Source: Pseudomonas sp. MUP55
GTDB taxonomy: Bacteria > Pseudomonadota > Gammaproteobacteria > Pseudomonadales > Pseudomonadaceae
NCBI RefSeq assembly: GCF_034043515.1
Contig: NZ_CP138214.1
Span: forward strand, 1,178,001 to 1,242,000
Length of the DNA: 64,000 nucleotides
Direction of reading: 5' to 3'
This document shows, piece after piece, positions 27,803 to 43,556 of this stretch (its first letter is position 1; every line of letters begins with the position of its first letter). The notes beneath the pieces were generated by a model that made no database searches, was not told the origin of the DNA, and saw nothing but the letters and a program-made list of their open reading frames with translations. Both the position numbers and the translations under genes were made by a program.

Positions 27803-28291
27803 TCAGAAGGCTTTGAGGGCTTCCTGCGTTTCGTTGTTGATGGTGTGGGTGAAGGCGTTACGCAGGTCTGCGCCCTCGGCCAGCGCCCTGGCGTCGTCGA
27901 GCAAGTGCGGGTGATGGTCCAGCAGGCGCATCAGCACCATCAGCGGTTTGGGCGGCGTTATTTCGCCGCGTTCGTAGCGGGAAAATGCGTTGTGCCCGCC
28001 GCCGGACAGCCATTGCACGGTTTCTTTCTGCGTGAGCTGCAGCTTGCGGCGAATACGCTTGAGTTCGGCGCCCATCATCTGCCGGGCGGCGTGGAGCAGT
28101 TCATCACCTGCCTTGGCATGGCGTTCGCTGCTGTCGGGATCGTACATGCCGTCCTCGCACACCTGGCATTCCCAGCCTGAAAGGTCATCAATGCGCCGCT
28201 CCATCCCTTTTATGCGCAGGGTTTCGCTGCGACCTTCAAAGCGTGTCATGGCGTCGGGGGCACCACAGATACAGCATTGTTGGGTTTTCAT
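27803..28291 (-). CDS. mqsA: MqsA-type antitoxin / autorepressor
   Basis: MqsA neutralises MqsR and represses the operon. The 162-residue protein has an N-terminal zinc domain (Cys6/Cys9 and Cys42/Cys45 as CxxC pairs) and a C-terminal HTH-XRE domain (LQLTQKETVQWLSGGGHNAF, then SRYERGE). The GGGxNAFSRYE segment is the DNA-recognition helix of E. coli MqsA, including its Asn and Arg contacts. It is longer than E. coli MqsA (131 residues) at the C-terminus. Its start overlaps the mqsR stop by 4 bases; toxin first and antitoxin second is the normal mqsRA order. A palindromic operator lies upstream of mqsR. Confidence 0.93.
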   Translation of the reverse strand: MKTQQCCICGAPDAMTRFEGRSETLRIKGMERRIDDLSGWECQVCEDGMYDPDSSERHAKAGDELLHAARQMMGAELKRIRRKLQLTQKETVQWLSGGGHNAFSRYERGEITPPKPLMVLMRLLDHHPHLLDDARALAEGADLRNAFTHTINNETQEALKAF

Positions 28292-28599
28292 GGGTTCATC
28301 CCTTTGAAGGAGATCACCGGAGGATTACTGCCGGAGCAGTAAGTCACCTTGATGTAAATCTCCAGACCATGTGAGTGGATGTGGTAGACGTCTTGCCAGA
28401 CCCGATGATCGGCGTAGGTGGTCATCGACTTGTACAACATCCGGTTTTTGAGTTCGTAAACGATCGCCTGCATCTCGCTGATATCGAGGTCGAGAGCCTT
28501 TCCCGTTTCCTTGGCCGCACGGGTGAATGCTCGTGCTCCCAGCCGCCTGACATCCGCCTTGATCACCGCCAGATCGTAATGAGGTGTGTACTTTTCCAT
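28288..28599 (-). CDS. mqsR: MqsR-type mRNA interferase toxin
   Basis: MqsR is a RelE-fold ribonuclease that cuts mRNA, in E. coli mainly at GCU, and slows growth. The 103-residue product starts MEKYTPHYDLAVIKADVRRL and carries DLDISEMQAIVYELKNRML, YKSMTTYADHRVWQDVYH and YIKVTY, which correspond to the E. coli protein (98 residues) along its length. No frameshift or truncation is seen, so the toxin looks intact. It overlaps mqsA and is transcribed from the promoter containing the palindrome at 28618-28638. Confidence 0.93.
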   Translation of the reverse strand: MEKYTPHYDLAVIKADVRRLGARAFTRAAKETGKALDLDISEMQAIVYELKNRMLYKSMTTYADHRVWQDVYHIHSHGLEIYIKVTYCSGSNPPVISFKGMNP

Positions 28600-29418: not shown

Positions 29419-30673
29419 AACCAAACCTGTGCCCGACCTGGAAGAACTGTTGATTGACGCCGAAGCGGACGACGAGGCCGTGCAACAGGCGCATCCGACC
29501 GTCACGCGTCCCTTGCTGTTGCTGCTGGGCCTGGTGCTGGTGGCGCTGAACCTGCGACCGGCGTTATCGAGCCTGTCGCCGTTGCTGGCCGAGATATCTG
29601 GCAACCTGGGGTTATCGGCGGCCAAGGCCGGGCTGCTGACGACATTGCCGGTGCTGTGCCTGGGGCTGTTCGCGCCCACGGCGCCGATCCTGGCGCGGCG
29701 CTTTGGTGCCGAGCGTGTGGTGCTCGGCATCCTGCTGACCCTGGCCGGCGGGATCATCCTGCGCAGTTCGTTCGGCGAAGTGGGGTTGTTTGCCGGCAGC
29801 CTGATTGCCGGGGCCAGTATCGGCATCATCGGCGTGTTGCTGCCCGGCATCGTCAAGCGTGATTTCGCCCGGCAGGCCGGCGCCATGACGGGTGTCTACA
29901 CCATGGCATTGTGCTTGGGGGCCGCACTGGCTGCCGGTGCCACTGTGCCGTTGACCCGTTACTTCGGCGACAGCTGGCAGATTGGCCTGGGTTTCTGGAT
30001 CGTGCCGGCGCTGGTGGCGGCGCTGTTCTGGCTGCCGCAGCTCGGGCACAAACACGGCACCCACCGAGTTGCCTACCGAGTCAAAGGCCTGCTGCGCGAC
30101 CCGCTGGCCTGGCAGGTGACCCTGTACATGGGCCTGCAATCCTCCCTGGCCTACATCGTGTTCGGCTGGTTGCCGTCGATCCTCATCGGTCGCGGCCTGA
30201 GCGCCACCGAGGCCGGGCTGGCGCTGTCCGGCTCGATCATCGTGCAGTTGCTCAGTTCCCTGGCCGCGCCATGGCTGGCCACACGGGGCAAGGATCAGCG
30301 GCTGGCGATCGTGGTGGTGATGCTGCTCACACTGGGCGGTCTGTTCGGTTGCCTGTATGCACCGCTCGATGGCCTGTGGGGCTGGGCGATTGTGCTGGGC
30401 CTGGGCCAGGGCGGCACCTTCAGCCTGGCGCTGACCCTGATCGTGCTGCGCTCCCGGGATTCCCATGTGGCCGCCAACTTGTCGAGCATGGCCCAGGGCA
30501 TTGGCTACACCCTGGCCTCGATGGGCCCGTTTGCGGTCGGCCTGGTGCATGACTGGACCGGTGGCTGGACGGCGATCGGCTGGATCTTCGCCGTGATCGG
30601 CCTCGGCGCGATTATCGCCGGCCTCGGCGCCGGTCGCGCACGCTACGTCAATGTCACCAGCGAGAAAGTCTAG
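29408..30673 (+). CDS. MFS transporter, CynX/NimT family
   Basis: The 421-residue protein has 12 predicted membrane helices and the CynX/NimT opening LVLVALNLRPALSSLSPLL, followed by LGLFAPTAPILARRFGAERV. The family includes the cyanate-operon CynX and 2-nitroimidazole exporter NimT; the physiological substrate here is not known. The start lies within the last codons of the GntR gene (11-base overlap), which indicates co-transcription and likely regulation by it. Its TAG stop shares four bases (CTAG) with the stop of the convergent fimbrial adhesin gene. Confidence 0.9.
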   Translation: MNLETKPVPDLEELLIDAEADDEAVQQAHPTVTRPLLLLLGLVLVALNLRPALSSLSPLLAEISGNLGLSAAKAGLLTTLPVLCLGLFAPTAPILARRFGAERVVLGILLTLAGGIILRSSFGEVGLFAGSLIAGASIGIIGVLLPGIVKRDFARQAGAMTGVYTMALCLGAALAAGATVPLTRYFGDSWQIGLGFWIVPALVAALFWLPQLGHKHGTHRVAYRVKGLLRDPLAWQVTLYMGLQSSLAYIVFGWLPSILIGRGLSATEAGLALSGSIIVQLLSSLAAPWLATRGKDQRLAIVVVMLLTLGGLFGCLYAPLDGLWGWAIVLGLGQGGTFSLALTLIVLRSRDSHVAANLSSMAQGIGYTLASMGPFAVGLVHDWTGGWTAIGWIFAVIGLGAIIAGLGAGRARYVNVTSEKV

Positions 30674-31809
30674 AGATAGACGATCTCGACGGTGCCGGAC
30701 CCATTGAGGCGCACGATGTCACGTAGATCCAGGCTTTGCAGCGGTGCCAGGTAGGTCTTGATGCGCAGCGTGCCGGTCAGGGTCTGCATGGCGACCGGCC
30801 CGGTGCTCACGCCGCTCTTGTCGGTAAAGCCCAGCAGGCTGTTGGCGGCCATGGGGATTTGCCGCGCGGTGGCCGTGCTCCACGCCACGCCATCGCTGGT
30901 GGAGTCGGTGCGGTACAGCGTGGGAAGGCTGTCGGCGCTGAACTCTGCCGGATCAATGGTCAGGTAAAAACGCCCGATTTTGTTGCCGCTGGCATCCAGG
31001 TCCAGGCCATAGGCGGTTTCGTCGGTGCCGCCGGTGGCCGAGCCGTCGCGGTTGTCTTTCATGCGCAGGGCGAAGCGAATCGGCGCATCGCAGGTCACGC
31101 TCAGGCGCAGGGTGCGGGTGGGCAGCGGGGTGTCCGTGGTGGCGTTGAGGTCCTTGGCATACAACGTGGCGTAGTCCACCACGCCGTGGTCGGATAACGT
31201 CGGCAGGCAGGCGATGGGCGCAAAGTGCGCGCGCAGCGTCAGTTCCCGATAACGTGCGCTGCGGGGGCCGTGGAAGGTGCCGGAGACTTCCCAGGTGGCG
31301 GCGTCCTGCACGTGTGTCGCTGCGCTGTCGGCCCAGGCGCGCAGGGTCAGTTGCAGCGACAGGGTTTTTCCGGTGAGCACCGCACCCTGTTCGACCGGCG
31401 CGATGCCATGGCCGGCGCGCCACTCCAGCGCGCTGCCGGTGGACACGGGCGCCTGGCCCGCAGCTGGCAGCGTACCCAATTCCACGGCGCGGCCGTCCAG
31501 GACGGCGTTGCCCACCTCGATGGCATAGCTGCCGTGCTCGGTAAACAGCAGGCGGTGCGCGCTGTTGGCCGGTGCGCGGTAGAACAGGCTGAGGTCCTGG
31601 ACCTGCGCGCAATTGATCGTCAGGCTCAAGCGCCGCTCGCCAAGCAGACGTTGGGCCGCGCTGTCATTTTGCGCAAGGCGGTTCATCCAGCCGAAATCCA
31701 CCTGCGGTTCGCTGATGCCCAGTTGGCATTCGTCCTGGGCCTGAGCGGTAGCGGCAAACCCGAGCAATAGCCCCAGGCTCAGTTGACGCAAACAGGTGAC
31801 AAGGGGCAT
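30670..31809 (-). CDS. Two-domain fimbrial tip protein (N-terminal domain plus DUF1120-like pilin domain)
   Basis: The 379-residue product has a signal peptide (MPLVTCLRQLSLGLLLGFAA) and two parts. Residues about 25-185 form an unrecognised domain with its own cysteines (Cys29, Cys67). Residues about 190-379 repeat the plan of the DUF1120 subunits upstream: Cys201 and Cys240, exactly 39 apart, an AKDLN motif between them, and a C-terminal strand LNGSGTVEIVYL. That is the architecture of a chaperone-usher tip adhesin. I start at ATG 31809, which has GAGGA upstream; ATG 31824 overlapping the usher stop (ATGA) is also possible. Last gene of the fimbrial operon; its receptor is unknown. Confidence 0.8.
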   Translation of the reverse strand: MPLVTCLRQLSLGLLLGFAATAQAQDECQLGISEPQVDFGWMNRLAQNDSAAQRLLGERRLSLTINCAQVQDLSLFYRAPANSAHRLLFTEHGSYAIEVGNAVLDGRAVELGTLPAAGQAPVSTGSALEWRAGHGIAPVEQGAVLTGKTLSLQLTLRAWADSAATHVQDAATWEVSGTFHGPRSARYRELTLRAHFAPIACLPTLSDHGVVDYATLYAKDLNATTDTPLPTRTLRLSVTCDAPIRFALRMKDNRDGSATGGTDETAYGLDLDASGNKIGRFYLTIDPAEFSADSLPTLYRTDSTSDGVAWSTATARQIPMAANSLLGFTDKSGVSTGPVAMQTLTGTLRIKTYLAPLQSLDLRDIVRLNGSGTVEIVYL

Positions 31810-31820
31810 GGCGATAGTCC

Positions 31821-34247
31821 TCATGGGAGGTTGCACCGGGCAGGCGCGGTTTCGAAGTACACCGAGGGGTCGGCTGCTTGCGCCAGTTCGTAGCGCAGCT
31901 CGCAGCGTCCACCTTGCGGCGTGGTTATCCACAGCGTGGGTTGATCCAGCACGTTGGGCAGAAACACCTGGCTGCCTTCCTGGACCAAGGTAATGAATTC
32001 ACCGCTACCGCTGCTGACGGACGCGCCGGCAGGCAACGCTTGGCCTCGGTCGGTGCTGACGGTGAGCAGCACGCGGCGAGTCAGGCCGACGCCGAATTCG
32101 ACCCGGTCCACCGCGCCGCGCCCGGCCGAGATCATCGCCAGGCCGTTGTTGATATCGGCATTGCGCGGCAGCGAGCGGGTCTGGACTTCCACCGGGCTGC
32201 GGCCATAAGCGGCCACGTGCGGCACCACGGCCTGGCCTTGCCAGTCGGTCCAGACCGGGCCGCTGGGGGTGCTGAGCTTGATACCGCTGATCTCGCCCAC
32301 AGACACCAGGGCAAAGGTGTCGCGCACCGAGTAGGGGGAAAACGTCACGCCGTCACCGTGCAGCACCACGGCGCCGCGAGCGCCACCCTGGTAGCTCGAA
32401 CGCTCGGCATCGGAGCGGCTGTAGCTCAGATCGAGCTGGCTGTAGCGCGGCAGCGCCGAGATGCCCAGGGTGCTTTGCACTTGATGGTCGCGGCTGTCGT
32501 GTTCGGCGCTGACGCGGTAGCTGAGCTGGTCGTCGATCTGTTCGGTCAGGCCCAGGCCGGTGCGATTTTCACCGCCTGAGTTGCGCACCCAACTGCGCAG
32601 CCGGCGATTCTCGCCCAGCGGTACGCTGAGGGTGAGATAGAGCGCGTTGTCCTGTTGCTGGCTGCCGCTCATTTGCCACTCGGCGCTGGCTGACACAGAC
32701 ACCGCGCGCAGGCTTGTGCCCCAGGACGCCAACGCGCGGCTGCTGCTTTTCCCGCTAAAGTTGGTCGAACGCGAAGCCCCGGCGCTGAACGCACCCAGCA
32801 GCGGATGTGACCATCCCAGGTTGAGGCTTTGCTGGTCGCGATAGCGTGCGTTGTGATGGCGGTCATCAGCCTCATAGCTGCTTTCTTCGAGTTCGCGATA
32901 ACCGATGCTGCGCCAGGAATTGGCGGCGCTGATCGACCACTGTTCCCCCAGGCGCTGTGACCAGGAAAGATCGGTCTGTACGCCGGACACTGTTTCCAGC
33001 GCCTGGGTATTGGAGACTTGCGTGGCCAGTTGAACCTGACTGTCCAACCATGGCATCCAGCCGAGGCTGGCGCCCACCGAGCGGTATTCGCTGGCCGCCA
33101 TCACGCCGCTGCCCAGCGTCAATTGCGGATGCAGAGAGCCGGTCCAACCGGCGCTGACCACCCAGGGATCATCGCCCTTGGCGTCGCCGACAGTGCGCAC
33201 CCGGCCTGCCGCCAATGAATAACCCGGCGCTGGCAAGCCCAGGCCGAGCATGGCGGCCGGTACGCTGAAGCGCCGTTCACCGCCGACACTTTCCTTGACC
33301 GTGACTTCGACGTCCGAGCGCGTGTTCAAGCGGCGCACATCGGTCAAGGCAAAGGGGCCGGCGGGCACCACGGTGGAGTGAATCAGGACGCCGTTCTGGC
33401 GTACTTCAACCTGTGCCGGGCTGTTGGCGATGCCCTGGATCAGCGCACCCTGGCCCTGTTCCTGTAGAGCATGCTCGGTGAGCACCTGGACGCCGGTGAT
33501 CTGCGCGCCGGACAGCACCGGGTTGTAGAGGTTGATCTGCCCGGCCTGCAGCACCGCCTGCTGGTTGGCAAACGTGCGTTGGGCATAGGCTTGCAGATGG
33601 GTGCTGCGCGACAGGCCGTCCTGCCAGGTCTGCACCTGGCGGCTGCGCACGATCCAATCGCCGGCATTGAATCCCACTTCGGTGTTGGCCGAGCCAAACC
33701 GGCTGGCGTCATCGCCGAAGCGGTTGTAGAACCCGCTGAAGTCGTAATTGAGCAGCCCGCCGAACCCGCCGGTTTCATAGCCCGAGGTATCCTGCTGCGC
33801 GGGACGCAGGGCCTCGGTGGGCACCACCAGCGATACCGTCAGCATTGCCGGGTCCGGCTCCACCAGGCTCTGGGGATACCGCGCGATAAAATCGTGACAG
33901 CCCGGCGTTTCACTGGGCATCACCAGGTTGGCGGCGTCCAGCAAGGCGCGGTCGAAGCACAGATTGCCCTGCTGATCGAAATTCACTTCGTGCCGACCAC
34001 GTGGCTGGCCGTTGACGCGCAGGTTGACGCTGTGCCCGCCGGCGGCGAAACGCGGGGCGGCCAGCAACAGGCTGGCCAACTGCGGGTCGATGCCGCGCTG
34101 GTGCAGGGTCTGGACGTCGAAACCTGAGGTGTCGGCCCGGGCAACGCCCGGCACCAGCGCGCACAGCAGAGCCATCAGCGCCAAGGTGGGGGTGGCCTGG
34201 GTCGCGGGCACGGCTGCGCCGTCACGGTAACTCAATACTGTTCTCAC
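31821..34247 (-). CDS. Outer-membrane fimbrial usher (FimD/PapC family)
   Basis: The usher is the outer-membrane pore that assembles and extrudes pilus subunits. The 808-residue product starts at GTG 34247 and has a signal peptide ending VPGVARA. It then has the N-terminal periplasmic domain (VNLRVNGQPRGRHEVNFDQQ), the 24-stranded barrel with plug segments (YSLAAGRVRTVGDAKGDDPW), and C-terminal domains including GRSPVEVQTRSLPRNADINN and CELRYELAQ. It lies 84 bases after the chaperone gene and overlaps the adhesin reading frame. The start has no clear ribosome site, so the first residues are uncertain. Confidence 0.93.
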   Translation of the reverse strand: MRTVLSYRDGAAVPATQATPTLALMALLCALVPGVARADTSGFDVQTLHQRGIDPQLASLLLAAPRFAAGGHSVNLRVNGQPRGRHEVNFDQQGNLCFDRALLDAANLVMPSETPGCHDFIARYPQSLVEPDPAMLTVSLVVPTEALRPAQQDTSGYETGGFGGLLNYDFSGFYNRFGDDASRFGSANTEVGFNAGDWIVRSRQVQTWQDGLSRSTHLQAYAQRTFANQQAVLQAGQINLYNPVLSGAQITGVQVLTEHALQEQGQGALIQGIANSPAQVEVRQNGVLIHSTVVPAGPFALTDVRRLNTRSDVEVTVKESVGGERRFSVPAAMLGLGLPAPGYSLAAGRVRTVGDAKGDDPWVVSAGWTGSLHPQLTLGSGVMAASEYRSVGASLGWMPWLDSQVQLATQVSNTQALETVSGVQTDLSWSQRLGEQWSISAANSWRSIGYRELEESSYEADDRHHNARYRDQQSLNLGWSHPLLGAFSAGASRSTNFSGKSSSRALASWGTSLRAVSVSASAEWQMSGSQQQDNALYLTLSVPLGENRRLRSWVRNSGGENRTGLGLTEQIDDQLSYRVSAEHDSRDHQVQSTLGISALPRYSQLDLSYSRSDAERSSYQGGARGAVVLHGDGVTFSPYSVRDTFALVSVGEISGIKLSTPSGPVWTDWQGQAVVPHVAAYGRSPVEVQTRSLPRNADINNGLAMISAGRGAVDRVEFGVGLTRRVLLTVSTDRGQALPAGASVSSGSGEFITLVQEGSQVFLPNVLDQPTLWITTPQGGRCELRYELAQAADPSVYFETAPARCNLP

Positions 34248-34331
34248 GCAGGGTACTCAAGTCGTGACGATCAATGCGCCGTCAGTGGGTTATCCAGGCG
34301 GCGAGGTGCAGCTGGCCGCCTGCGATCGGCA

Positions 34332-35039
34332 TCAGAGGACGATCGGTGCGTCGTAGGCCTTGACCGCAAATCCGTACACGGTGGCCGGCTGCAGCCTGAC
34401 GGTGGTGGCCTGGCCACCGCTGGCCGGCACGCTCAAGGCTTCGCCCGGCAGCACGTAGGTGCGCGGCAGCATCGCCTTGCCATCGCCGGGCAATAGCAGC
34501 AGCTCCTGCGCCAGACGCACCACATACGGCGTGTCATTGCGCACCTGCAACTGGCCGGCGTGCAGGGCCCAGGTCAGGCCGGTCCACGGCGTGCGGTTGA
34601 GCGCCAGGCCCTTGGGGTGCACGATCACCGGCAAGTTCTGGCGCACGGTCACGCCCACGCGGGCATGCCCGGCGGCAATGGCTGCGCGGCCCTGGGGCAT
34701 GCCTTCGAACACCGCGCGCTTGAGCCTTTGGGTGAGCAGCGGTTGCTGGTTTTGCAGAATGAAGCGCACCAGCTGGGATTTGGAGGCTTCGACCCGCGAC
34801 AGCGGCGGCGTCACTACCAGCAGCGGCTCGGTGTCCTCGGGTATGTCCTGCAACGTGACATGCAGCAGCGCGAGCTGGCTGTCGGTGTTGGTAACCGACA
34901 CCGCCGCTTCGCCATCGGCTTCATGCACGATGACCACGGAGGTGTCGGGCACCATGCCGTCGGCCATGGCTGGATTGCCGAGCATCAGCAGCAGGGCGGT
35001 CAGGCCGGCAGTGGTGTGTGAGCGTGTCGTCGTTATCAC
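34332..35039 (-). CDS. Periplasmic fimbrial chaperone (PapD-like)
   Basis: The chaperone completes the fold of pilin subunits by donor-strand complementation and hands them to the usher. The product of 235 residues starts at GTG 35039 with the signal SHTTAGLTALLLMLGNPAMA. The Ig-like domain has VIVHEADGEAAVSVTNTDSQ, the subunit-binding edge VTPPLSRVEASKSQLVRFIL with its alternating hydrophobics and basic anchor, and the second domain LPVIVHPKGLA. It follows the third DUF1120 gene by 20 bases and precedes the usher, so it is expected to serve the DUF1120 subunits. Confidence 0.92.
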   Translation of the reverse strand: MITTTRSHTTAGLTALLLMLGNPAMADGMVPDTSVVIVHEADGEAAVSVTNTDSQLALLHVTLQDIPEDTEPLLVVTPPLSRVEASKSQLVRFILQNQQPLLTQRLKRAVFEGMPQGRAAIAAGHARVGVTVRQNLPVIVHPKGLALNRTPWTGLTWALHAGQLQVRNDTPYVVRLAQELLLLPGDGKAMLPRTYVLPGEALSVPASGGQATTVRLQPATVYGFAVKAYDAPIVL

Positions 35040-35059
35040 GGGTTTTCCAGGTGAGCGGG

Positions 35060-35743
35060 TCAGAGGTAGCGCAAGTCCAGGACAATGGAGCCGTCAAGCG
35101 GGACCTCCTGATCCAGGGTCAATTGCTGCGAAAAGTTGATGGCGGTGTCCACCTGAAGCTGGACGGTCAATTGGCTGACAAAGTCCGGTTGCCGGTCGCC
35201 TGCCGGCGCGAAGGCCATATAGGAACGGGGGTAGGCGTTGGGGTCCGGTGTCCAGCTTTCGCCGTTGCTGGTGGAGGCCAACACCTGCATGGGTTGTGCG
35301 TCGCCCACTGGGTTGCGATAGGACAACGCCACCGAGCCAAGGCGTTCAGTGGGGGCGTGGATGTTGCGGCCCAGCCCGTAGAAAAAATCCGGCGCCATCG
35401 AGGACTCCGCACGATTGTCCACGCCCACCAGCGCAAACAGCATCGGGCGAGCGCATTGCACGTGCAGTTCGAGCGTTCGGCTGGGCAGCACGGTGTACTC
35501 GTCGGGGTTGAGGCTATGCGAGGCAATCCTGCCGTGGTCAACCGAGCCGCCATTGGTCAGCTCGATATGGCAGGCATCCGGTATGACCCGGCCGGTCACC
35601 CTGAGGTCGACGGTTGAAGCCGCATGGACCTCGCCCAGGGGCGCGAGGCAGACGAGGGGAACCAGGTAGCGGATGAACCTGTTCAGCACCGGCACAGGTA
35701 GGCGCAGCCCATGCCCGTCAGTGTTCAAGGGATGGGCGGCCAT
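35060..35743 (-). CDS. DUF1120 protein, probable fimbrial subunit 3
   Basis: The 227-residue product has a signal peptide (cleaved near GEVHA) and a mature start STVDLRVTGRVIPDAC, resembling a donor strand followed by the first pilin cysteine. Cys58 and Cys97 are 39 residues apart, as in the other subunits. It ends VPLDGSIVLDLRYL, with the penultimate Tyr and alternating hydrophobics of a chaperone-bound pilin strand. It begins 2 bases after the previous gene's stop with no clear ribosome site, so it is translationally coupled. The N-terminus is longer than in its paralogues and might begin at a later codon. Pilin identity is inference. Confidence 0.82.
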   Translation of the reverse strand: MAAHPLNTDGHGLRLPVPVLNRFIRYLVPLVCLAPLGEVHAASTVDLRVTGRVIPDACHIELTNGGSVDHGRIASHSLNPDEYTVLPSRTLELHVQCARPMLFALVGVDNRAESSMAPDFFYGLGRNIHAPTERLGSVALSYRNPVGDAQPMQVLASTSNGESWTPDPNAYPRSYMAFAPAGDRQPDFVSQLTVQLQVDTAINFSQQLTLDQEVPLDGSIVLDLRYL

Positions 35744-35745
35744 GG

Positions 35746-36366
35746 TTACAGGTACTTCACTTCGAGCGTGGCGGAGCCGTCGATGGTGACCTCGTTGCTC
35801 AGGTCCAGGCCGTCGGCGCGGTTGATCACGGTCTGCACGCCCAGATCGAGGCGCAGATCCTTGACTGCCACAGGCTGGGTGTCGTCATCCATGGACGCTA
35901 CGGACATGTACATGCCTGGCTCCCAGATATTTTCTCTGAACCAGGTGTTGCCTTGGTCATAGGAGCCGATGGGCTGCACCACTGTCCCGCCTTCCGCAAC
36001 CGGATTGCGCAGGCTGAGGGAGTACCAGCCCAGCTTCTGACTATCGTTGACAAACCCCAGGCCGTAGCTCGACGTGGCACCCGACGCTGCACGGTTGTCG
36101 ACCGAGTGCAAGGCGAACTGGATCGCAGCGTCGCAGCTGACCGCCATGCTCAGGGTGTGATTGCCAATGATGGTGTAGCTGTCCGGGTTCAGGTCCTTGG
36201 CGGAGATCTTGCCGTGGTCAATCACGCCACCCCCGGAAAAGCTGGGCGTACAGGCGCTGGGCACGATCAGGCCCTTGACGGTGAGGTCCACGTTGGAGGC
36301 GGCAAGGGTGGTGGCTGAGGCGAGCAGCAAGACGCTGCTGGCCAGGGCGGTCAGGCGGGTTTTCAT
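35746..36366 (-). CDS. DUF1120 protein, probable fimbrial subunit 2
   Basis: The 206-residue product has a signal peptide (MKTRLTALASSVLLLASATT) and a mature start ASNVDLTVKGLIVPSAC. Cys39 and Cys78 are 39 apart with AKDLN between them. It ends VTIDGSATLEVKYL, a typical pilin G strand with Tyr next to last. AAGGAG lies 6 bases upstream of the ATG, the strongest ribosome site in the operon after the first gene. It is 10 bases from the previous DUF1120 gene. DUF1120 has no assigned function; the features here and the chaperone and usher downstream argue for a structural subunit. Confidence 0.85.
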   Translation of the reverse strand: MKTRLTALASSVLLLASATTLAASNVDLTVKGLIVPSACTPSFSGGGVIDHGKISAKDLNPDSYTIIGNHTLSMAVSCDAAIQFALHSVDNRAASGATSSYGLGFVNDSQKLGWYSLSLRNPVAEGGTVVQPIGSYDQGNTWFRENIWEPGMYMSVASMDDDTQPVAVKDLRLDLGVQTVINRADGLDLSNEVTIDGSATLEVKYL

Positions 36367-36376
36367 GAAAAGCTCC

Positions 36377-36991
36377 TTAGAGGTAATTGACTTGTACGGT
36401 GGCGTGGCCGTCGATGGGGACTTCGTCGGTGAGCGTCAGGCTTTGGGCGGGTGCGATGTGGGTGATCAGACGGATTTGCGCGTCCAGCTCCCGGACCGCA
36501 ATCGGCACGATGCCGTCGCTGCTGGCGACGGCGGTGAGCAAGGTATGGCTGAGCATCACGGAGGGCATCCAGGTCACGCCGCCATCCCTTGAGGTAATGG
36601 TGCGTACGGGAACGCCGTCGGCTACCGGCAGGTAAAGGCCGAGCCCGGCATCGCCGACTTTTTCATCGTTGGGCGTGGTGCCCAGACCATGCCAGCTGAA
36701 GTGGCTGGCGGCAGTGCCCGCGCGGTTGTCGAGGGTGTTGAGGGTAAAAAACGTTGGCCCGTCGCAGCGCACGCTCAGCCGCATGGTTTCTCTGGGCAGT
36801 TCGGTGTAGGTCTGGGTGTTGAGGTCCTTGACCGACACTTTGCCGAAGTCGACAGTGCCGGCGCCGGAAATCACTGGTGCGCAGGCGCTGGGCGTGATGG
36901 CGCCCTGGACAAGCAATTCGGTATGGCTGGCGGCGAATACGCTCGGGCAAAGCAGCAAGGCGCCCATCAAACCGGGTGCGAAAACCTTCAT
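36377..36991 (-). CDS. DUF1120 protein, probable fimbrial subunit 1 (first gene of operon)
   Basis: The 204-residue product has a signal peptide (MKVFAPGLMGALLLCPSVFA) and a mature start ASHTELLVQGAITPSAC. Cys37 and Cys76 are 39 apart with VKDLN between them, and the C-terminus reads VPIDGHATVQVNYL. I start at ATG 36991, which has AAGGAG 11 bases upstream and a good signal peptide; the open frame further upstream is not coding. As the first gene of the fimbrial operon it is a candidate for the major subunit, which is inference from order only. A 534-base divergent regulatory gap separates it from the response-regulator gene. Confidence 0.85.
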   Translation of the reverse strand: MKVFAPGLMGALLLCPSVFAASHTELLVQGAITPSACAPVISGAGTVDFGKVSVKDLNTQTYTELPRETMRLSVRCDGPTFFTLNTLDNRAGTAASHFSWHGLGTTPNDEKVGDAGLGLYLPVADGVPVRTITSRDGGVTWMPSVMLSHTLLTAVASSDGIVPIAVRELDAQIRLITHIAPAQSLTLTDEVPIDGHATVQVNYL

Positions 36992-37525
36992 GGCGAATGA
37001 ATCTCCTTGGGTGAAACGGGAGTGCGGGGTGTTGCAGGTACAGCAGCTCAACGGTGGCGCAAACGATCGATGGCCACTCTTCGACTCAAGGTCAGGCACG
37101 GCAGGCGCGACCCTTCGGCGACAGGGCCTGGTCATCGCAGCGTGTTCCATCGCTTGTGGTATCGAAACGCGTGCGGGGCTGCGCCCGGCCTGTGTGGGCG
37201 GGTGCCTGGCTCGGCGGCGTTTTCTGATGGTTGTTGGCGGTTGCCGGGGAGTGGCGAGCCGTCCCTCTATGGGGGTGGGCACACTGTAGCGAGCGGTTCG
37301 CGCAGGGGAAATACAACTAATACGACACGGGTGGCATAGGCAGGCCACGCTCAAAGAGGTGCTTTTTCGTAGTTGTTGTATCGGCATGGAGGCACTCAAA
37401 AGGTTATCTGTCTCTGGCCGATACCCCTCCAAAAGGATGTGGCAATCATCCTGCACAAGGCCTTCCAGGGCGATTGCATCAGTGTCACAGGTTGCCGCTG
37501 GATCAATAGCCATAACGAGGTAGTG
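36992..37525. promoter_or_regulatory. Divergent control region between fimbrial operon and response-regulator gene
   Basis: No gene is supported in these 534 bases. AGTTGTAT-type elements face each other: ATACAACTA at 37311-37319 and TAGTTGTTGTAT at 37370-37381. They resemble the GTTGTAGGC repeats near the next regulator gene, so they may be sites for one of these response regulators; this is inference. Confidence 0.4.
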
Positions 37526-38341
37526 ATGGTTTCGCAGGAAGGTTCAACCGCAGGACCGAGCCGCAAACCAGATCCGCCTGTTGTCCCAACGCGTCATTGG
37601 CAGCACATGAATATCCTGGTGGTGGAGGACCACTCAGCCTACCGCCTGCTGTTGGGCTGGATGTTGCAGAAGCTGGGCCTGGGGCACGAGTTGGCTGCCG
37701 ATGGGTTCATGGGACTGGAGGCGTTTACCCGCCGGCCCTTTGACTTGGTGATCTGCGATTGCCAGATGCCGTTCATGGATGGTTACAGCATGGCCAGCGC
37801 CATCCGCGAGCATGAGCGCGATCAGGCGTTGAACCGCGTACCGATCATTGCCTTGACCGCCAACCTGCAAAACGACAGCCCCCGGCGCTGTCACAAAGCG
37901 GGCATGGATGCCTGGTTGCTCAAACCACTGACGCTTGAACAACTGCACGCCGTGCTGATGCGCTGGTTGCCAGGCAGCGATGCTCCGCAAGCCGGCGAGC
38001 AGACTGCGCCAGTCGCGAGTTGGCCAACCCGTGACACGCTTGTCGCGACGTTTGGCAGCGACGTGATCGTCGATCAGTTACTGGAGGGTCTGCTGGTGGA
38101 GGCCTGGGAAGACTTGCGCGTCTTGCGCCATGCCTGTTCGGCCCAGGACGCCTCATTGGCTGCCGAGCGCCTGCATCGCCTGGTGGGGAGCCTGGCGTTT
38201 CTGGGCGGCAGCGACCTGGAATTCACCGCTGTTCAACTGATGGAGCAGGTCCGGTCTGGTGAGGTGGCTTCCCACACGGTGCAGATGGAGCTGTTCCAGG
38301 CACGCTTGCGCGTCTATCTCGACTATTTGGCCAGTATTTGA
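37526..38341 (+). CDS. Response regulator receiver-HPt protein
   Basis: The 271-residue protein joins a receiver domain (residues about 28-145) to a histidine phosphotransfer domain (about 170-270) and has no output domain. The receiver has acidic Glu34/Asp35, phosphoacceptor Asp78 in VICDCQMPFMDG, and the conserved Lys in WLLKPLT. The HPt motif ERLHRLVGSLAF places the phosphorylated histidine at 217. Such proteins relay phosphate between a hybrid kinase and a response regulator. The ATG at 37526 has GAGG upstream; a later ATG at 37607 (MNILVVEDH) is an alternative. It is divergent from the fimbrial operon and followed by a NarL-type regulator. No sensor kinase is nearby, so its kinase is elsewhere. 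Confidence 0.88.
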   Translation: MVSQEGSTAGPSRKPDPPVVPTRHWQHMNILVVEDHSAYRLLLGWMLQKLGLGHELAADGFMGLEAFTRRPFDLVICDCQMPFMDGYSMASAIREHERDQALNRVPIIALTANLQNDSPRRCHKAGMDAWLLKPLTLEQLHAVLMRWLPGSDAPQAGEQTAPVASWPTRDTLVATFGSDVIVDQLLEGLLVEAWEDLRVLRHACSAQDASLAAERLHRLVGSLAFLGGSDLEFTAVQLMEQVRSGEVASHTVQMELFQARLRVYLDYLASI

Positions 38342-38386
38342 ACCCGTGCCTGCGAGGGCTCTCAGTCCCCCTGCGAGCTGATTTTG

Positions 38387-38417
38387 GTTGTAGGCGTTTT
38401 CCTATTGTGTTGTAGGC
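38387..38417 (+). promoter_or_regulatory. Direct repeats GTTGTAGGC upstream of the NarL-type regulator gene
   Basis: GTTGTAGGC occurs at 38387-38395 and 38409-38417, 22 bases apart, about two helical turns. They lie about 120 bases before the regulator start, suggesting a tandem protein-binding site, perhaps autoregulatory. Confidence 0.5.
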
Positions 38418-38538
38418 AAAAAAATAGCCAGTACTGAACATTGGGCGTGGCTGCAAGTGACGCTTTGTTAGCTGTTGTTGATGATCGCTGGCGGAGGTAT
38501 TTTGCGCGGATTCAAGTTGCCATCATTCGTGGGTACCT

Positions 38539-39174
38539 ATGCTTCGAGTAATTATTGCTGACGATCACCCTATTGTTCGCGTCGGGCAAAGGGTCGTGAT
38601 CGAGGCGAATGGAAGATGCAAAGTGGTCGGCGAGGCCGACGGTCCCGATCAGTTGCTTGACGTGTTGAGCAAAAACCCATGCGACGTGCTGGTCACGGAC
38701 TTCGCCATGCCAGGCGGCCAGCAGGCCGATGGCTACGGTTTGTTGGGCCTGCTGCACCGCCAGTATCCGCAGGTGCCGGTGATTGTGGTGACGATGTTCG
38801 CCAGCATCGCCATCTTGCGTGCGGCTTTCTCCCATGGCGTTCGCGGCGTGGTCGCCAAGAGCGCGTCGGCCAAGGAGTTGCCCCAGGCGATCAAGGCCGT
38901 GTGTGCCGGCCAGACCTTCACCAGCGAATCCCTGCGCTTGCAGTTAGTGGAGTCGGGGGTGAGCGACCAGTCCGCGCAGCCCAGGTTGTCCGACAAAGAG
39001 CGCGAGGTGGTGCGCATGTTGGCCAGCGGCATGACCGTCAGCCAGATTGCGGCGCAGGTCAACCGCAGTATTTCCACGATCAGCAAGCAGAAAAGCACGG
39101 CCATGCAACGGTTGAGCATTTCCACCGATGTCGATCTGTTTGCTTATGCGCGCGATACGGGAATGGTGCCGTAG
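38539..39174 (+). CDS. NarL/FixJ-family response regulator (BvgA/RocA-like)
   Basis: The 211-residue protein has a receiver domain (MLRVIIADDHPIVRVGQRVV, acidic Asp8/Asp9, phosphoacceptor Asp54 in LVTDFAMPGG) and a C-terminal LuxR-type helix-turn-helix. The latter reads LSDKEREVVRMLASGMTVSQ, then IAAQVNRSISTISKQKSTAM. The layout is that of BvgA, EvgA and RocA regulators, several of which control fimbriae. Together with the receiver-HPt gene upstream it probably forms a phosphorelay acting on the neighbouring fimbrial operon. That link is inferred from position only. Confidence 0.9.
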   Translation: MLRVIIADDHPIVRVGQRVVIEANGRCKVVGEADGPDQLLDVLSKNPCDVLVTDFAMPGGQQADGYGLLGLLHRQYPQVPVIVVTMFASIAILRAAFSHGVRGVVAKSASAKELPQAIKAVCAGQTFTSESLRLQLVESGVSDQSAQPRLSDKEREVVRMLASGMTVSQIAAQVNRSISTISKQKSTAMQRLSISTDVDLFAYARDTGMVP

Positions 39175-39243
39175 AAAGCAATGGCTTTCTCGTGTTGCGC
39201 GGACTATCGTTCGGCACCCCTGTTCATCCTGCGAAAACTGCCC

Positions 39244-39714
39244 ATGAGTGATGCCCATAACGCCCTGATCACTGAGTTCTACAGCGCCTTTGAGCGCCTG
39301 GACGCCGAAGCCATGGCCGCCTGTTATACCCAGGACGTGCTGTTCAGCGATCCGGCCTTCGGCCAATTGCGCGGGCAGGATGCCGGCGACATGTGGCGGA
39401 TGCTCACCACGCGGGCCAAGGATTTTTCCCTGACCTTTGACAACGTGCGCAGCGAGGGCAATGAGGGCAGCGCGCACTGGGTGGCGACCTACCTGTTCAG
39501 CGCGACCGGCAATACGGTGGTCAACGATATTCAAGCGCGCTTTGTGTTTCGTGACGGCAGGATCTGCGAGCACCACGACCATTTCGACCTGTGGCGCTGG
39601 TCGCGTCAGGCGTTGGGCACCAAGGGCCTGTTGCTGGGCTGGACGCCCCTGGTGAAAAACGCCGTACGCGCCCAGGCGCGCAAAGGTTTGAAGGCATTCC
39701 AGGCCGCTCGTTGA
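39244..39714 (+). CDS. SnoaL/NTF2-like domain protein
   Basis: The 156-residue protein starts MSDAHNALITEFYSAFERLD and has the NTF2/SnoaL cone features: MAACYTQDVLFSDPAFGQLR, WVATYLFSATGNTVVNDIQA and ICEHHDHFDLWRW. The fold covers enzymes and ligand-binding proteins, so the biochemical role cannot be stated. The ATG at 39244 is chosen because the conserved domain starts at once; the frame extends 21 codons upstream without support. It is followed after 21 bases by a GIY-YIG gene, possibly co-transcribed. Confidence 0.85.
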   Translation: MSDAHNALITEFYSAFERLDAEAMAACYTQDVLFSDPAFGQLRGQDAGDMWRMLTTRAKDFSLTFDNVRSEGNEGSAHWVATYLFSATGNTVVNDIQARFVFRDGRICEHHDHFDLWRWSRQALGTKGLLLGWTPLVKNAVRAQARKGLKAFQAAR

Positions 39715-39735
39715 TAAGCTGGGTGCCTCTGTACC

Positions 39736-40023
39736 GTGCCGAATCCCGTCGTGAACACGCCTGAATCCAAACCCTGGTTCGTCTACCTGGTACGCGCCGC
39801 CAATGGCTCGCTGTATTGCGGCATCAGCAATGACCCGGTGCGCCGGTTCGCCACGCATCAGAGCGGCAAGGGCGCGCGGTTCTTTCTTTCCAGCCCCGCC
39901 GTTGCGCTGGTGTACACCGAGCAATGCGCGAGCAAGGGCGAAGCGCTGCGCCAGGAACGCCTGATCAAGAAATTGAAGAAGAGCGCCAAGGAGTGCCTGG
40001 CGGCGAGCGGTCCATCACGCTGA
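39736..40023 (+). CDS. GIY-YIG nuclease-family protein (UPF0213/YhbQ-like)
   Basis: The 95-residue protein has the GIY-YIG catalytic fold: [20 protein letters not shown] (the GIY and YIG positions replaced by VYL and YCG), then [20 protein letters not shown] and the Glu-containing [14 protein letters not shown]. It corresponds to the short single-domain YhbQ type, whose biological role is poorly known. The start is a GTG at 39736 without a strong ribosome site; GTG 39751 is equally possible. No partner gene suggests a repair pathway. Confidence 0.85.
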
Positions 40024-40098
40024 CTGATAGGTTCCCATCACGCCGCCCAGCTGTTTTGCGCGCTAAGCTGCGGGCTCATTCCTCAAGTAGACCCCTGC

Positions 40099-41034
40099 AT
40101 GTCTGAACTCATCCTGCACCATTACCCGACGTCGCCGTTTGCGGAAAAAGCTCGGCTGCTGCTGGGCTTCAAAGGCTTGTCCTGGCATTCGGTACACATC
40201 TCGCCAGTGATGCCCAAGCCCGACCTGACGGCCTTGACCGGCGGCTACCGGAAAACCCCGGTGCTGCAGGTCGGCGCGGACATCTATTGCGACACCGCCT
40301 TGATCGCCCGGCGCCTGGAGCAGGAAAAATCTTCGCCGGCGCTGTTCCCCCTGGGCCAGGAAATGATCACCCAGACCTTCGCCACCTGGGCCGACAGCGT
40401 CGTGTTCGCTCACGCCGTCAGCCTGGTGTTCCAGCCCGAGTCGGTGGCGGTGCGGTTTGGCAAGTTGCCGCCGGAAGCGATCAAGGCGTTTATGGCCGAC
40501 CGCGCCGCGCTGTTCAGCGGGGGCACGGCAAGCAAGCTGCCGGCCGAACTGGCCAAGCAGCAATGGCCGGCGATCATGGCGCGCCTGGAGCAACAGTTGC
40601 AGCGCGAACCGGGGGACTTTCTGTTTGGCGAACCGACGATTGCCGACTTTGCCCTGGCTCACTCGCTGTGGTTTCTCAAGGCCACCCCGGTGACCGCGCC
40701 GTTGGTGGATGCCTATCCGGCCGTGTTGGCGTGGCTGGGGCGCGTGCAGGGCTTTGGCCATGGCACCGCCAGCCCGATGACGGCGGAGCAGGCGTTGCAG
40801 ATCGCCCGCGAGGCCACGCCTGCGGCTTTGCCGGATGAAGTGTTCGAGGACCTCAATGGCTTTACGGCCGGCCAGCAGGTCACGATTGCGGCGATTGACT
40901 ACGGCGTCGATCCGGTGGCTGGAGAGCTGATGTTTGTCGGGCGCGAAGCCTTGATCCTGCGCCGCACCGACGAGCGCGCCGGCACGGTGCATGTGCATTT
41001 CCCACGCTTTGGTTTCCGCATTCAGGCGCAATAG
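40099..41034 (+). CDS. Glutathione S-transferase-family protein
   Basis: The 311-residue protein has an N-terminal thioredoxin-like GST domain (ELILHHYPTSPFAEKARLLL, then GGYRKTPVLQVGADIYCDTA) and a C-terminal helical domain with FLFGEPTIADFALAHSLWFL. It is longer than typical GSTs because of about 90 extra residues at the C-terminus (from TAEQALQIAREATPA), seen in a subgroup of pseudomonad GST-like proteins. The substrate is unknown. A single gene with its own ATG 40099; no operon is evident. Confidence 0.88.
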   Translation: MSELILHHYPTSPFAEKARLLLGFKGLSWHSVHISPVMPKPDLTALTGGYRKTPVLQVGADIYCDTALIARRLEQEKSSPALFPLGQEMITQTFATWADSVVFAHAVSLVFQPESVAVRFGKLPPEAIKAFMADRAALFSGGTASKLPAELAKQQWPAIMARLEQQLQREPGDFLFGEPTIADFALAHSLWFLKATPVTAPLVDAYPAVLAWLGRVQGFGHGTASPMTAEQALQIAREATPAALPDEVFEDLNGFTAGQQVTIAAIDYGVDPVAGELMFVGREALILRRTDERAGTVHVHFPRFGFRIQAQ

Positions 41035-41141: not shown

Positions 41142-43556
41142 ATGAAATCGACGGCGGGCGGTTGGGTCAAACAGTGGCTGGGAGCCTCGGTATTTTCAGT
41201 CTCGGCGCTGGCGTTGCTGCCCCTGGCCGTGGCACAGCCGCAGGAACAGCAAAGCGCCCAGTTCAACTTTGCCCTGGCGGCCAAACCACTGCCCCAGGCG
41301 CTGAGCGATTTCAGCCGGGTTACCGGAATCAGCGTGATCTATACCGACGAAGCGCCCTATGGCCTCAGCGCCCCGGCGCTCAACGGGCACATGAGCGCGA
41401 CCCAGGCGCTGCAACGCCTGCTGGGCAATTCGGGCTTCACCTTCCGCCAGATCGACGCCCGTACCCTGGCGCTGGAACCGCAGCCCGCCGATGGCGCGGT
41501 CAATCTCGGTGCCACCACCATCAGCGCCGCCAGCCCTGGTCAGGACAGCACCAGCTATCAGCCGCCACCGACCAGCTCGGTGATGCGCTCGCGCGGCTTG
41601 CTGCTGGAAACCCCGCAAACCGTCAACGTGGTGCCCGCCCAGGTATTGCGCGATCAACAGCCGCGCAACCTGGACGATGCGCTGGGCAATGTCAGCGGTA
41701 TCACCCAGTCCAACACCCTGGGCAGCACCCAGGACGCGGTGATGCTGCGCGGCTTTGGCGACAACCGCAATGGCTCGATCATGAAGGACGGCATGCCGGT
41801 GGTGCAGGGCCGCGCGTTGAACGCCACCGCCGACCGCGTGGAAGTGCTCAAGGGCCCGTCATCGCTGCTGTACGGCATCCAGGACCCGGGCGGCGTGGTC
41901 AACATCGTCAGCAAAAAGCCCGAGTTGGTGCAGTCCACTTCCCTGACTGCGCGCGGCTCCACGTTCGGCAGCGGCAAGAACGGCAGTGGCGGCAACCTCG
42001 ATACCACCGGCCCGATAGGCGACAGCGGCCTGGCCTATCGCCTGATCGTCGACCATGAAGACGAAGACTATTGGCGCAACTACGGCACCCACCGCGAAAC
42101 CCTGGTGGCGCCGTCGCTGGGCTGGTATGGCGACGCGACCCAAGTGGTGGTTGCCTATGAACACCGCGAGTTTCTGTCGCCGTTCGACCGTGGCACAGCC
42201 ATCGACCCAAAAACCAATCACCCCCTGAACATCCCCGCGACCCGCCGCCTGGATGAGCCTTTCAACAACATGCAAGGCCGCTCCGACCTGTACCGCCTGA
42301 CGGTCGATCACGACCTCAACGATGACTGGAAAGCCCACTTCGGCTACAGCTGGAACCGCGAAACCTACGACGCCAGCCAGGTGCGTGTGGTCAAGGTCAA
42401 TACCAACGGCACCTTGACCCGCAGCATGGACGGCACCCAGGGCGCGCTGACCACCGACCGCTTCGCCACCGCCAGCCTTGAAGGCAAGGTCGACGTTGCC
42501 GGCATGCAGCACGACCTGGTGTTCGGGCTGGACGATGAATACCGCAAGATCTACCGCGCCGACCTGATCCGCCAGGCGCCACGCGGCAGCTTCAACTACA
42601 ACGATCCGGTCTACGGCAACGAAGTCGCGGGCTCCAACGTCAGTGCGCCGGACAGCAACCAGACCGACCTGCTGCGCAGCGATTCGCTGTTCTTCCAGGA
42701 TGCCATCCACCTGAACGACCAGTGGATCCTGGTGGGCGGTGCGCGCTACCAGATGTACGACCAATACGCCGGCAAGGGCGTGCCGTTCACCGCCAACACC
42801 GATGGCAACGGCCAGAAGTGGGTGCCGCGTGCCGGGCTGGTGTATCGCTACACCGATGAGCTGTCGTTCTACGGCAGCTACACCGAGTCGTTCAAACCCA
42901 ACTCCACCATCGCGCCGCTGGCCAACAAAACCGTGCTCGATGGCAGCCTGCAGCCGGAAGAGTCCAAGGCCTGGGAGCTGGGCACCAAGTTCGACTTGCC
43001 GGGGCGTATCACCGCGAGCGCGGCGCTGTTCACCATCGACAAGCGCAACGTGCTGGTGCAGGTGGGCGAGGGGCTGACCTCGGTCTACAGCGTGGCGGGC
43101 AAGGTTCGTTCCCGTGGCCTGGAGCTGGATGCCAGCGGCCAGCTGAGCGACAAGTGGAGCCTGATCGGCAGTTACGCCTATACCGATGCCGAGGTCACCG
43201 AAGACCCGACCCTCAAGGGCAACCGCCTGCAGAACGTGGCAAAGAACACCGCCTCGTTGTCGGCCGTGTATGACTTCGGCAGCATCCTGGGCGGCGATCA
43301 ATTGCGCGTCGGTGCCGGTGCGCGTTACGTGGGCGAGCGGGCAGGGGACGCGGCCAACAGCTTCGAACTGCCCAGCTACACCGTGGCCGATGTGTTCGCC
43401 AGCTATGACACCCGGCTCGACGGGCAGAAGGTCAAGTTCCAGCTCAACGTGAAGAACCTGTTCGACCGTACCTACTACACCTCGTCGGTGAACACGCAGT
43501 TTGTGTCCATTGGCGATGCGCGGCAGGTGTCGGTGTCCAGCACCCTTACCTTCTGA
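41142..43556 (+). CDS. TonB-dependent siderophore receptor with N-terminal signalling (STN) domain
   Basis: This 804-residue outer-membrane receptor imports a ferric siderophore using TonB energy. A signal peptide (SVFSVSALALLPLAVAQP region) is followed by an STN domain (residues about 40-105: PLPQALSDFSRVTGISVIYT), the plug (QTVNVVPAQVLRDQQPRNLD, then VEVLKGPSSLLYGIQDPGG), and the 22-stranded barrel ending in a terminal Phe (VSVSSTLTF). The STN domain normally talks to a FecR-type anti-sigma factor, but no such pair is adjacent. Sequence type resembles FpvA/FoxA/FiuA receptors; the ligand cannot be named. Confidence 0.93.
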   Translation: MKSTAGGWVKQWLGASVFSVSALALLPLAVAQPQEQQSAQFNFALAAKPLPQALSDFSRVTGISVIYTDEAPYGLSAPALNGHMSATQALQRLLGNSGFTFRQIDARTLALEPQPADGAVNLGATTISAASPGQDSTSYQPPPTSSVMRSRGLLLETPQTVNVVPAQVLRDQQPRNLDDALGNVSGITQSNTLGSTQDAVMLRGFGDNRNGSIMKDGMPVVQGRALNATADRVEVLKGPSSLLYGIQDPGGVVNIVSKKPELVQSTSLTARGSTFGSGKNGSGGNLDTTGPIGDSGLAYRLIVDHEDEDYWRNYGTHRETLVAPSLGWYGDATQVVVAYEHREFLSPFDRGTAIDPKTNHPLNIPATRRLDEPFNNMQGRSDLYRLTVDHDLNDDWKAHFGYSWNRETYDASQVRVVKVNTNGTLTRSMDGTQGALTTDRFATASLEGKVDVAGMQHDLVFGLDDEYRKIYRADLIRQAPRGSFNYNDPVYGNEVAGSNVSAPDSNQTDLLRSDSLFFQDAIHLNDQWILVGGARYQMYDQYAGKGVPFTANTDGNGQKWVPRAGLVYRYTDELSFYGSYTESFKPNSTIAPLANKTVLDGSLQPEESKAWELGTKFDLPGRITASAALFTIDKRNVLVQVGEGLTSVYSVAGKVRSRGLELDASGQLSDKWSLIGSYAYTDAEVTEDPTLKGNRLQNVAKNTASLSAVYDFGSILGGDQLRVGAGARYVGERAGDAANSFELPSYTVADVFASYDTRLDGQKVKFQLNVKNLFDRTYYTSSVNTQFVSIGDARQVSVSSTLTF

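What the first reader, a model, noticed from the sequence alone, without database searches (positions are those of the whole stretch)
30670..39174. A chaperone-usher fimbrial system built from DUF1120 proteins, with a dedicated phosphorelay
Three tandem DUF1120 proteins and the C-terminal half of the last gene all have two cysteines exactly 39 residues apart (37/76, 39/78, 58/97, 201/240), a (K/S)DLN-like motif between them in most, a mature start of the form xLxVxGxIxPxAC, and a C-terminus ending in alternating hydrophobics and Tyr-Leu. These are the marks of donor-strand pilins. They sit in one operon with a PapD-like chaperone and a usher, and the last gene adds a separate N-terminal domain like a tip adhesin. 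A receiver-HPt protein and a NarL-type regulator lie divergently next to it. DUF1120 has no assigned function, so this would define it as a pilin family. Family names and motifs are established; the pilin role is my inference.
Basis: partly seen in the sequence, partly recalled or inferred. Interest (0 to 1): 0.85.

Follow-up and report, generated by a model that had tools for sequence, protein, structure and literature searches.

The report
Beta-fimbriae with a pilin-derived tip
This Pseudomonas gene cluster most likely builds a thin hair-like fibre of a known but little-studied class (beta-fimbriae), and its last gene looks like the tip piece that this class was thought to lack, fused to the first piece of the shaft.

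Summary
A minus-strand operon encodes three DUF1120 proteins, a PapD-like chaperone, an usher and a two-domain last protein; a receiver-HPt gene and an RcsB/NarL-type regulator are divergent to it. Calling DUF1120 a pilin is right but not new: the usher groups with E. coli YhcD, a published beta-fimbrial usher, whose DUF1120 neighbours are already called putative subunits.

What looks new is the last gene. Its N-terminal domain is a diverged DUF1120 pilin (hhalign 97.9%, E 4e-13) without the N-terminal donor strand: 306 of 307 pilin ORFs carry that motif, 0 of 84 tip domains do. It is homologous to E. coli YhcE, published as having no predictable function in a class said to lack tip subunits. 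I conclude that it is the tip. In Pseudomonas it was probably fused once to the adjacent DUF1120 pilin, whose N-terminal strand then probably completes it in cis.

The regulator ortholog occurs in exactly the 30 of 149 Pseudomonas genomes with this locus. No kinase ATPase domain lies in the 64-kb window, so "phosphorelay" is only partly supported. Nothing was tested at the bench.

The parts
36377..36991 (-). DUF1120 pilin D1, 204 aa, N-terminal extension ...TELLVQGAITPSAC
   Evidence: PF06551 53.1 bits on the longer mechanical ORF; Nte and Cys 37/76
35746..36366 (-). DUF1120 pilin D2, 206 aa
   Evidence: PF06551 64.3 bits; AlphaFold2 pLDDT 87.5; 50 of 50 VIA rows shown are chaperone-usher pilins or adhesins
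35060..35743 (-). DUF1120 pilin D3, 227 aa as listed (start uncertain)
   Evidence: PF06551 45.1 bits; Cys 58/97, Nte
34332..35039 (-). PapD-like periplasmic chaperone of the beta type (classical Arg8/Lys112 pair absent)
   Evidence: PF00345 64 bits; NF007392 242 bits, cut-off 183; V and P in 65 of 65 beta-type chaperones versus R and K in 7 of 7 other E. coli ones
31821..34247 (-). outer-membrane usher, beta clade
   Evidence: PF00577 304.8 bits; NF011832 652.5 bits, cut-off 723; tree with YhcD 99/99
30670..31824 (-). two-domain last protein, 384 aa (start 31824 or 31809): tip domain fused to a DUF1120 pilin domain; ends in a 4-base overlap with the convergent MFS gene
31252..31731 (-). tip domain (YhcE/PRK15301-like), residues 32-191: diverged DUF1120 pilin domain without an N-terminal donor strand
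   Evidence: NF011829 85.6 bits, cut-off 226; hhalign to DUF1120 pilins 97.9%, E 4.3e-13, 155 columns; no donor motif in 62 of 62 main-locus relatives, first Cys 3-5 residues after a signal-peptidase-like box in 61 of 62
31207..31248 (-). linker RELTLRAHFAPIAC (residues 193-206), in register with pilin donor strands, Ala in place of the Gly at -7; proposed cis donor strand
30673..31218 (-). DUF1120 pilin domain of the fusion (YhcF-like)
   Evidence: PF06551 56.2 bits; NF011831 62.1 and NF011830 56.9 bits, below cut-offs; hhalign to D2-type pilins 99.9%
36992..37606 (.). divergent intergenic region; no sigma-70-like site found by the scan and no inverted repeat (no invertible switch seen)
37607..38341 (+). 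receiver-HPt protein, 244 aa (upstream start 37526 possible), like the C-terminal module of large hybrid kinases
   Evidence: PF00072, PF01627; weaker relatives lie in frames of hybrid-kinase size
38539..39174 (+). RcsB/NarL-type response regulator, 211 aa
   Evidence: PF00072, PF00196; NF008098 RcsB 161.6 bits, below its cut-off 235; 30 of 30 co-occurrence

Best explanation
This is a beta-clade chaperone-usher fimbria. DUF1120 proteins D1-D3 are donor-strand pilins: each lacks its last Ig strand and offers an N-terminal extension to the next subunit. The chaperone holds them in the periplasm with a non-classical C-terminal anchor, and the usher polymerises and exports them. The last gene is the tip and leaves first. 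Its N-terminal domain is a pilin-derived domain that kept the acceptor side but lost the donor strand, so nothing can be added beyond it. In this Pseudomonas lineage it was fused, probably once, to the neighbouring pilin (separate overlapping genes yhcE and yhcF in E. coli), and that pilin's N-terminal strand now probably fills the tip domain's groove in cis. Expression is probably set by the linked RcsB/NarL-type regulator, fed through the receiver-HPt protein by a kinase encoded elsewhere. Shown by computation: gene content, homology, missing donor motif, clustering of fusions on one branch, co-occurrence. Inferred: assembly, tip position, cis complementation, adhesion, phosphotransfer.
For: Pfam and NCBIfam; usher tree, window + own second locus + YhcD 99/99 apart from six other E. 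coli ushers and two other own ushers; donor-strand motif in 306 of 307 pilin ORFs, Gly at -7 in 306 of 306, same register as FimA, FimF, FimG; the motif in 0 of 62 main-locus tips and 0 of 22 others; tip-pilin homology hhalign 97.9%, E 4.3e-13, against 0.6% for chaperones; YhcE matches the tip model NF011829 over residues 3-179, with yhcE-yhcF overlapping by 4 bases after the usher; fused tips form one side of one branch, 99/97, 98% of bootstrap trees; models and fold matches; tip and DUF1120 each in 52 of 149 genomes, 51 shared; regulator in exactly the 30 genomes with this locus.
Against: No bench evidence for this cluster. The structure list for the two-domain model mixes in unrelated Ig-like proteins at similar Z (OCRL1 9.1, CEP192 8.6, integrins 7.2-8.2), and strand pairing was not read directly, only alignment ranges and pLDDT. 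Tip-pilin homology was weak with near-identical rows only (60%, E 8.5e-5; 8.8% against the fused pilin domain). The tips of L140 and L142 have about 20 residues between a possible signal peptide and the first Cys, though without the motif. In L145 the tip gene lies before the usher. One pilin ORF of 307 missed the motif, and E. coli YhcF, which is not fused, has Val and not Gly at -7, so the loss of Gly is not a mark of fusion as such. No kinase is linked.
Confidence: 0.82

Rival explanations
1. The N-terminal domain of the last protein is an ordinary complete lectin-type adhesin domain, as in FimH or UcaD; residues 192-201 are its own last strand and not a borrowed donor strand.
Against: Standalone homologs (YhcE, own second locus) end soon after the preceding strand and lack residues 192-201; the strand matches pilin donor strands in register; the domain is homologous to DUF1120 pilins along its whole length.
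Confidence: 0.2
2. The fused last protein is not the tip but a terminator or base subunit, or a minor adaptor in the shaft.
For: Terminator subunits also depart from the pilin pattern (recalled for PapH); the gene is last in the operon.
Against: A base or adaptor subunit needs a donor strand at its N-terminus to join the subunit before it (recalled from type 1 and P pili); this protein has none there. Its DUF1120 half keeps the C-terminal pilin signature, which needs a partner's strand.
Confidence: 0.1
3. The DUF1120 proteins form non-fibrous surface layers or very thin fibrillae and not a rod.
For: Beta-fimbriae were predicted to be thin fibrillae or afimbrial (cited in PMC3373541, and PMC5216030; passages); Salmonella Stj fibres fell in the 2.3-3.5 nm group (PMC5583245, passages).
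Against: Stj was seen as slightly curved appendages when expressed. That Stj subunits are DUF1120 proteins was not tested here.
Confidence: 0.3
4. The regulators only happen to be neighbours and do not control the fimbria.
For: No kinase ATPase domain in the window; the receiver-HPt gene was found in only 44 of 63 loci.
Against: The response regulator is present in 59 of 63 loci, the other four being cut by contig ends, and its ortholog occurs in 30 of 149 genomes, exactly those with this locus. Shared descent of the region weakens this as proof.
Confidence: 0.15

Closest known systems
E. coli gltF-yhcADEF (Yhc beta-fimbriae)
   Same: Chaperone, usher, DUF1120 subunits, YhcE-type protein; usher in the same tree clade
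   Different: yhcE and yhcF are separate genes overlapping by 4 bases; one pilin gene before and one after; no regulator pair among the annotated neighbours shown
Salmonella Stj beta-fimbriae (StjB usher)
   Same: Published beta clade (PMC9238391, passages); probably the source of NCBIfam PRK15301-15304, which match the window (the link to stj is recalled, not tested)
   Different: Those models describe a separate 189-aa tip-like protein and 229-aa pilins; here they are fused
Own second locus, G000:C1:5682030-5686554 (L011:6030-10554)
   Same: Pilin, chaperone, usher, tip; beta type
   Different: Minimal set: one DUF1120 pilin and a standalone 194-aa tip; the regulator has a single ortholog in this genome, the window's
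Type 1 and P pili
   Same: Pilin fold, donor-strand register with Gly 7 before Cys, two-domain tip
   Different: Usher clade; FimC keeps Arg8/Lys112, absent here; only D1 hits PF00419, below cut-off (17.4 bits against 25.6)
CupB6 tip adhesin, P. aeruginosa
   Different: 12% identity; usher class not compared here

Membership tests
Beta-fimbriae | usher groups with a published beta usher (YhcD) | tested here: met
   99/99 clade against six other E. coli ushers and two other own ushers; yhc called beta in PMC5216030 (passages); NF011832 is the best family at 652.5 bits but below its cut-off 723, while YhcD scores 1268.8
Beta-fimbriae | DUF1120 structural subunits | tested here: met
   that this marks the clade is recalled from Nuccio and Baumler 2007, which is not held
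Beta-fimbriae | chaperone without classical anchoring residues | tested here: met
   65 of 65; stated for beta chaperones in PMC4654587 (passages)
Beta-fimbriae | no tip subunit (published expectation, not a defining part) | tested here: inconclusive
   a subunit without donor strand is in 62 of 63 main loci, in 20 of 20 further regions chosen because they hold it, in E. coli and in the own second locus; that it sits at the tip is inferred
Donor-strand pilins | incomplete Ig fold with free N-terminal extension | tested here: met
   model of D2 only
Donor-strand pilins | alternating hydrophobic Nte with Gly 7 before the first Cys | tested here: met
   306 of 307 ORFs have the motif, Gly in 306 of 306; E. 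coli GltF has it, YhcF does not
Donor-strand pilins | polymerisation by donor-strand exchange | not testable with these tools
   needs protein work
Classical FGS/FGL chaperone-usher systems | Arg8 and Lys112 anchor in the chaperone | tested here: not met
   V and P in 65 of 65 beta-type rows
Two-domain tip adhesins | extra N-terminal domain plus C-terminal pilin domain, no N-terminal donor strand | tested here: met
Two-domain tip adhesins | receptor binding by the N-terminal domain | not testable with these tools
   needs binding assays
RcsB equivalog (NF008098) | score over 235 bits | tested here: not met
   161.6 bits; RcsB/NarL-type only
Phosphorelay with its own kinase | histidine kinase in the same cluster | tested here: not met
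   none of the 70 HATPase_c matches of the genome lies in the window's range 1178001-1242000; a partner elsewhere is not excluded

The most novel reading that the evidence does not exclude
All beta-fimbriae have a tip subunit after all: the YhcE/PRK15301 family, a DUF1120 pilin that lost its donor strand. Its partner is the neighbouring DUF1120 pilin, whose donor strand lacks the usual Gly (Val in E. coli YhcF, Ala in the Pseudomonas linker). In Pseudomonas tip and partner became one protein, turning a donor-strand exchange step into a permanent cis complementation, so tip and shaft start are made as one piece.
Probability: 0.65. Interest if true: 0.65.

Novelty: new variant of a known kind. 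Interest (0 to 1): 0.5.

Why it matters
Beta-fimbriae were described as lacking a typical adhesin or tip subunit, and YhcE as having no predictable function (PMC3373541, PMC5216030, passages). The fused Pseudomonas gene gives both a concrete identity that a deletion and a micrograph can test. It is also a natural tip-shaft fusion, and it places a domain of unknown function firmly in the pilin fold, with a non-classical chaperone anchor.

Tried and rejected
DUF1120 as a new pilin family: rejected, already annotated as beta-fimbrial subunits. Cys spacing as a DUF1120 mark: rejected, general to pilins. Gly-to-Ala as a mark of the fusion itself: dropped, since unfused E. coli YhcF has Val there. 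Solved relatives by sequence: nothing significant (best FimG, E 0.24; best E 0.058 to an unrelated enzyme). A class-wide survey of the tip domain hit 2 of 369 genomes, the own one and a 25.9-bit partial match in a 1845-residue frame; DUF1120 hit 1 of 369, the own one. These surveys are insensitive: the DUF1120 control hit 0 of 14 named genomes although that set holds an E. coli and K-12 YhcF is annotated DUF1120. Promoter and inverted-repeat scans: nothing. Rfam and tRNA scans of the window: none. hhalign with the narrow tip alignment was weak (60%, E 8.5e-5); A3 gave 94.3%, E 1e-7 and the diverse alignment 97.9%.

Literature searched for a beta-fimbrial tip or a Pseudomonas DUF1120 fimbria. 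I saw none in the listings, which show at most 20 papers each, of an open-licence library. Papers were seen as listings or passages; of PMC4654587 also abstract and outline. Nuccio and Baumler 2007 is not held.
Full report
WHAT IS THERE. The minus strand from 36991 to 30670 reads D1, D2, D3 (DUF1120), PapD-like chaperone, usher, and a two-domain last protein. All four DUF1120 matches lie above the Pfam cut-off (45.1 to 64.3 bits against 21). The last gene starts inside the usher stop codon (ATGA, 31824) or 15 bases later, and ends in a 4-base overlap with a convergent MFS gene. Divergently lie a receiver-HPt gene and an RcsB/NarL-type regulator. By its relatives the window is a Pseudomonas, probably of the fluorescens group.

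WHAT KIND. An usher tree puts the window with the second own locus and E. coli YhcD (99/99), apart from FimD, ElfC, YraJ, HtrE, YehB, YbgQ and the two other own ushers, one of which has a very long branch. YhcD belongs to a published beta locus (PMC5216030, passages), and Salmonella StjB is a published beta usher (PMC9238391, passages). The chaperone model NF007392 is met (242 bits, cut-off 183). In 65 of 65 beta-type chaperones (62 loci, window, second locus, YhcA) the classical Arg8 and Lys112 positions hold V and P, while 7 of 7 other E. coli chaperones hold R and K. PMC4654587 had stated this for beta-fimbriae chaperones in 2015 (passages), so it supports membership and is not new.

TIP. 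In the 62 loci that hold the domain, 0 of 62 tips have the donor motif before the first Cys, and in 61 of 62 that Cys is 3-5 residues behind a signal-peptidase-like box (the box pattern is loose). Of 22 further tips (20 Pseudomonas regions, an E. coli strain, the second own locus) 0 have the motif; two, L140 and L142, have about 20 residues there. A diverse tip alignment (31 rows) aligns with DUF1120 pilins at 97.9%, E 4.3e-13, 155 columns, against 0.6% for the Ig-fold chaperones. A narrow alignment was weak (60%, E 8.5e-5). Pfam sees DUF1120 in two standalone tips only below cut-off (12.0 and 13.6 bits) and not in the window's tip domain. So the tip looks like a diverged pilin domain that kept its acceptor side and lost its donor strand, which is what an end subunit needs.

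THE SAME PROTEIN ELSEWHERE. E. coli YhcE matches NF011829 (PRK15301) over residues 3-179 (54.3 bits); the window's N-domain matches it at 85.6 bits and the second locus's 194-aa protein over residues 22-119 (51.3). All are below that equivalog's cut-off of 226. In an intact E. coli locus the order is gltF-yhcA-yhcD-yhcE-yhcF, yhcE and yhcF overlapping by 4 bases. In print YhcE has no predictable function and beta pili are said to lack tip subunits (PMC5216030; similarly PMC3373541; passages). All 20 further Pseudomonas regions, taken because they hold the domain, have usher and chaperone beside it; the tip gene follows the usher in 19 and precedes it in L145.

REGULATION. The regulator is in 59 of 63 loci and the receiver-HPt in 44 of 63; the four loci without the regulator end at a contig border. 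In 149 genomes the regulator ortholog (E at most 1e-60) occurs in 30, exactly the 30 whose best tip match has E at most 1e-60 (lists compared), on the same contig within 10 kb by their coordinates. Strong receiver-HPt matches (E below 1e-50) occur in 18, all within those 30; of the eight weaker matches seven lie in frames of 1118-1246 residues, the size of hybrid kinases, and one in a frame of 651. None of 70 HATPase_c matches in the genome lies in the window. So the pair looks dedicated, but the kinase is elsewhere and phosphotransfer is inference.

CO-OCCURRENCE. DUF1120 and the tip domain each occur in 52 of 149 genomes and share 51 (G457 has only a weak tip match with a stop, G468 only DUF1120).

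PRIOR SIGHT OF SUCH FIBRES. Salmonella Stj, the beta-fimbria there, was seen by AFM and TEM as slightly curved appendages in a group of 2.3-3.5 nm (PMC5583245, passages). That its subunits are DUF1120 proteins is my inference.

VERDICT. Real and well conserved; a member of a known class; the pilin claim is not new; the tip identity and the tip-shaft fusion appear new within what I could search.

Noticed in passing
window 27803-28599: MqsR/MqsA toxin-antitoxin pair (PF15723 99.5 bits, PF15731 91.7 bits) beside the GntR-MFS genes; both found in 39 of the 63 relatives' loci too.
   Followed up: partly
G000:C1:5682030-5686554 (L011:6030-10554): Second, minimal beta-fimbrial locus in the same genome: one DUF1120 pilin, chaperone, usher and a standalone tip.
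   Followed up: yes
L013-L073, just after the fused gene: 56 of 61 loci that hold both fused gene and MFS gene carry at least one more DUF1120 pilin ORF over 150 aa between them; L012, L030, L053, L059 and L064 do not, nor does the window, where the two genes overlap by 4 bases.
   Followed up: partly
63 loci L012-L074: Number of DUF1120 pilin ORFs, fragments included, varies from 1 to 11 per locus region, suggesting frequent duplication and loss.
   Followed up: no
L010:13927-14643 (E. coli yhcF): YhcF, next to the tip gene, has Val and not Gly at the donor-strand position -7, like the non-Gly linker of the fused proteins.
   Followed up: partly
L145 (G391): Beta-type locus with the tip gene before the usher and pilins on both sides.
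   Followed up: no
L010:12186-13930 (E. coli K-12): yhcE is interrupted by an IS5 element in K-12, while an intact copy is annotated in another strain.
   Followed up: partly
window 41142-43556: TonB-dependent receptor with an N-terminal STN signalling domain (PF07660).
   Followed up: no
window 39181-41034: SnoaL-like, GIY-YIG and glutathione S-transferase genes follow the regulator; found in 58, 58 and 36 of 63 relatives' loci.
   Followed up: no
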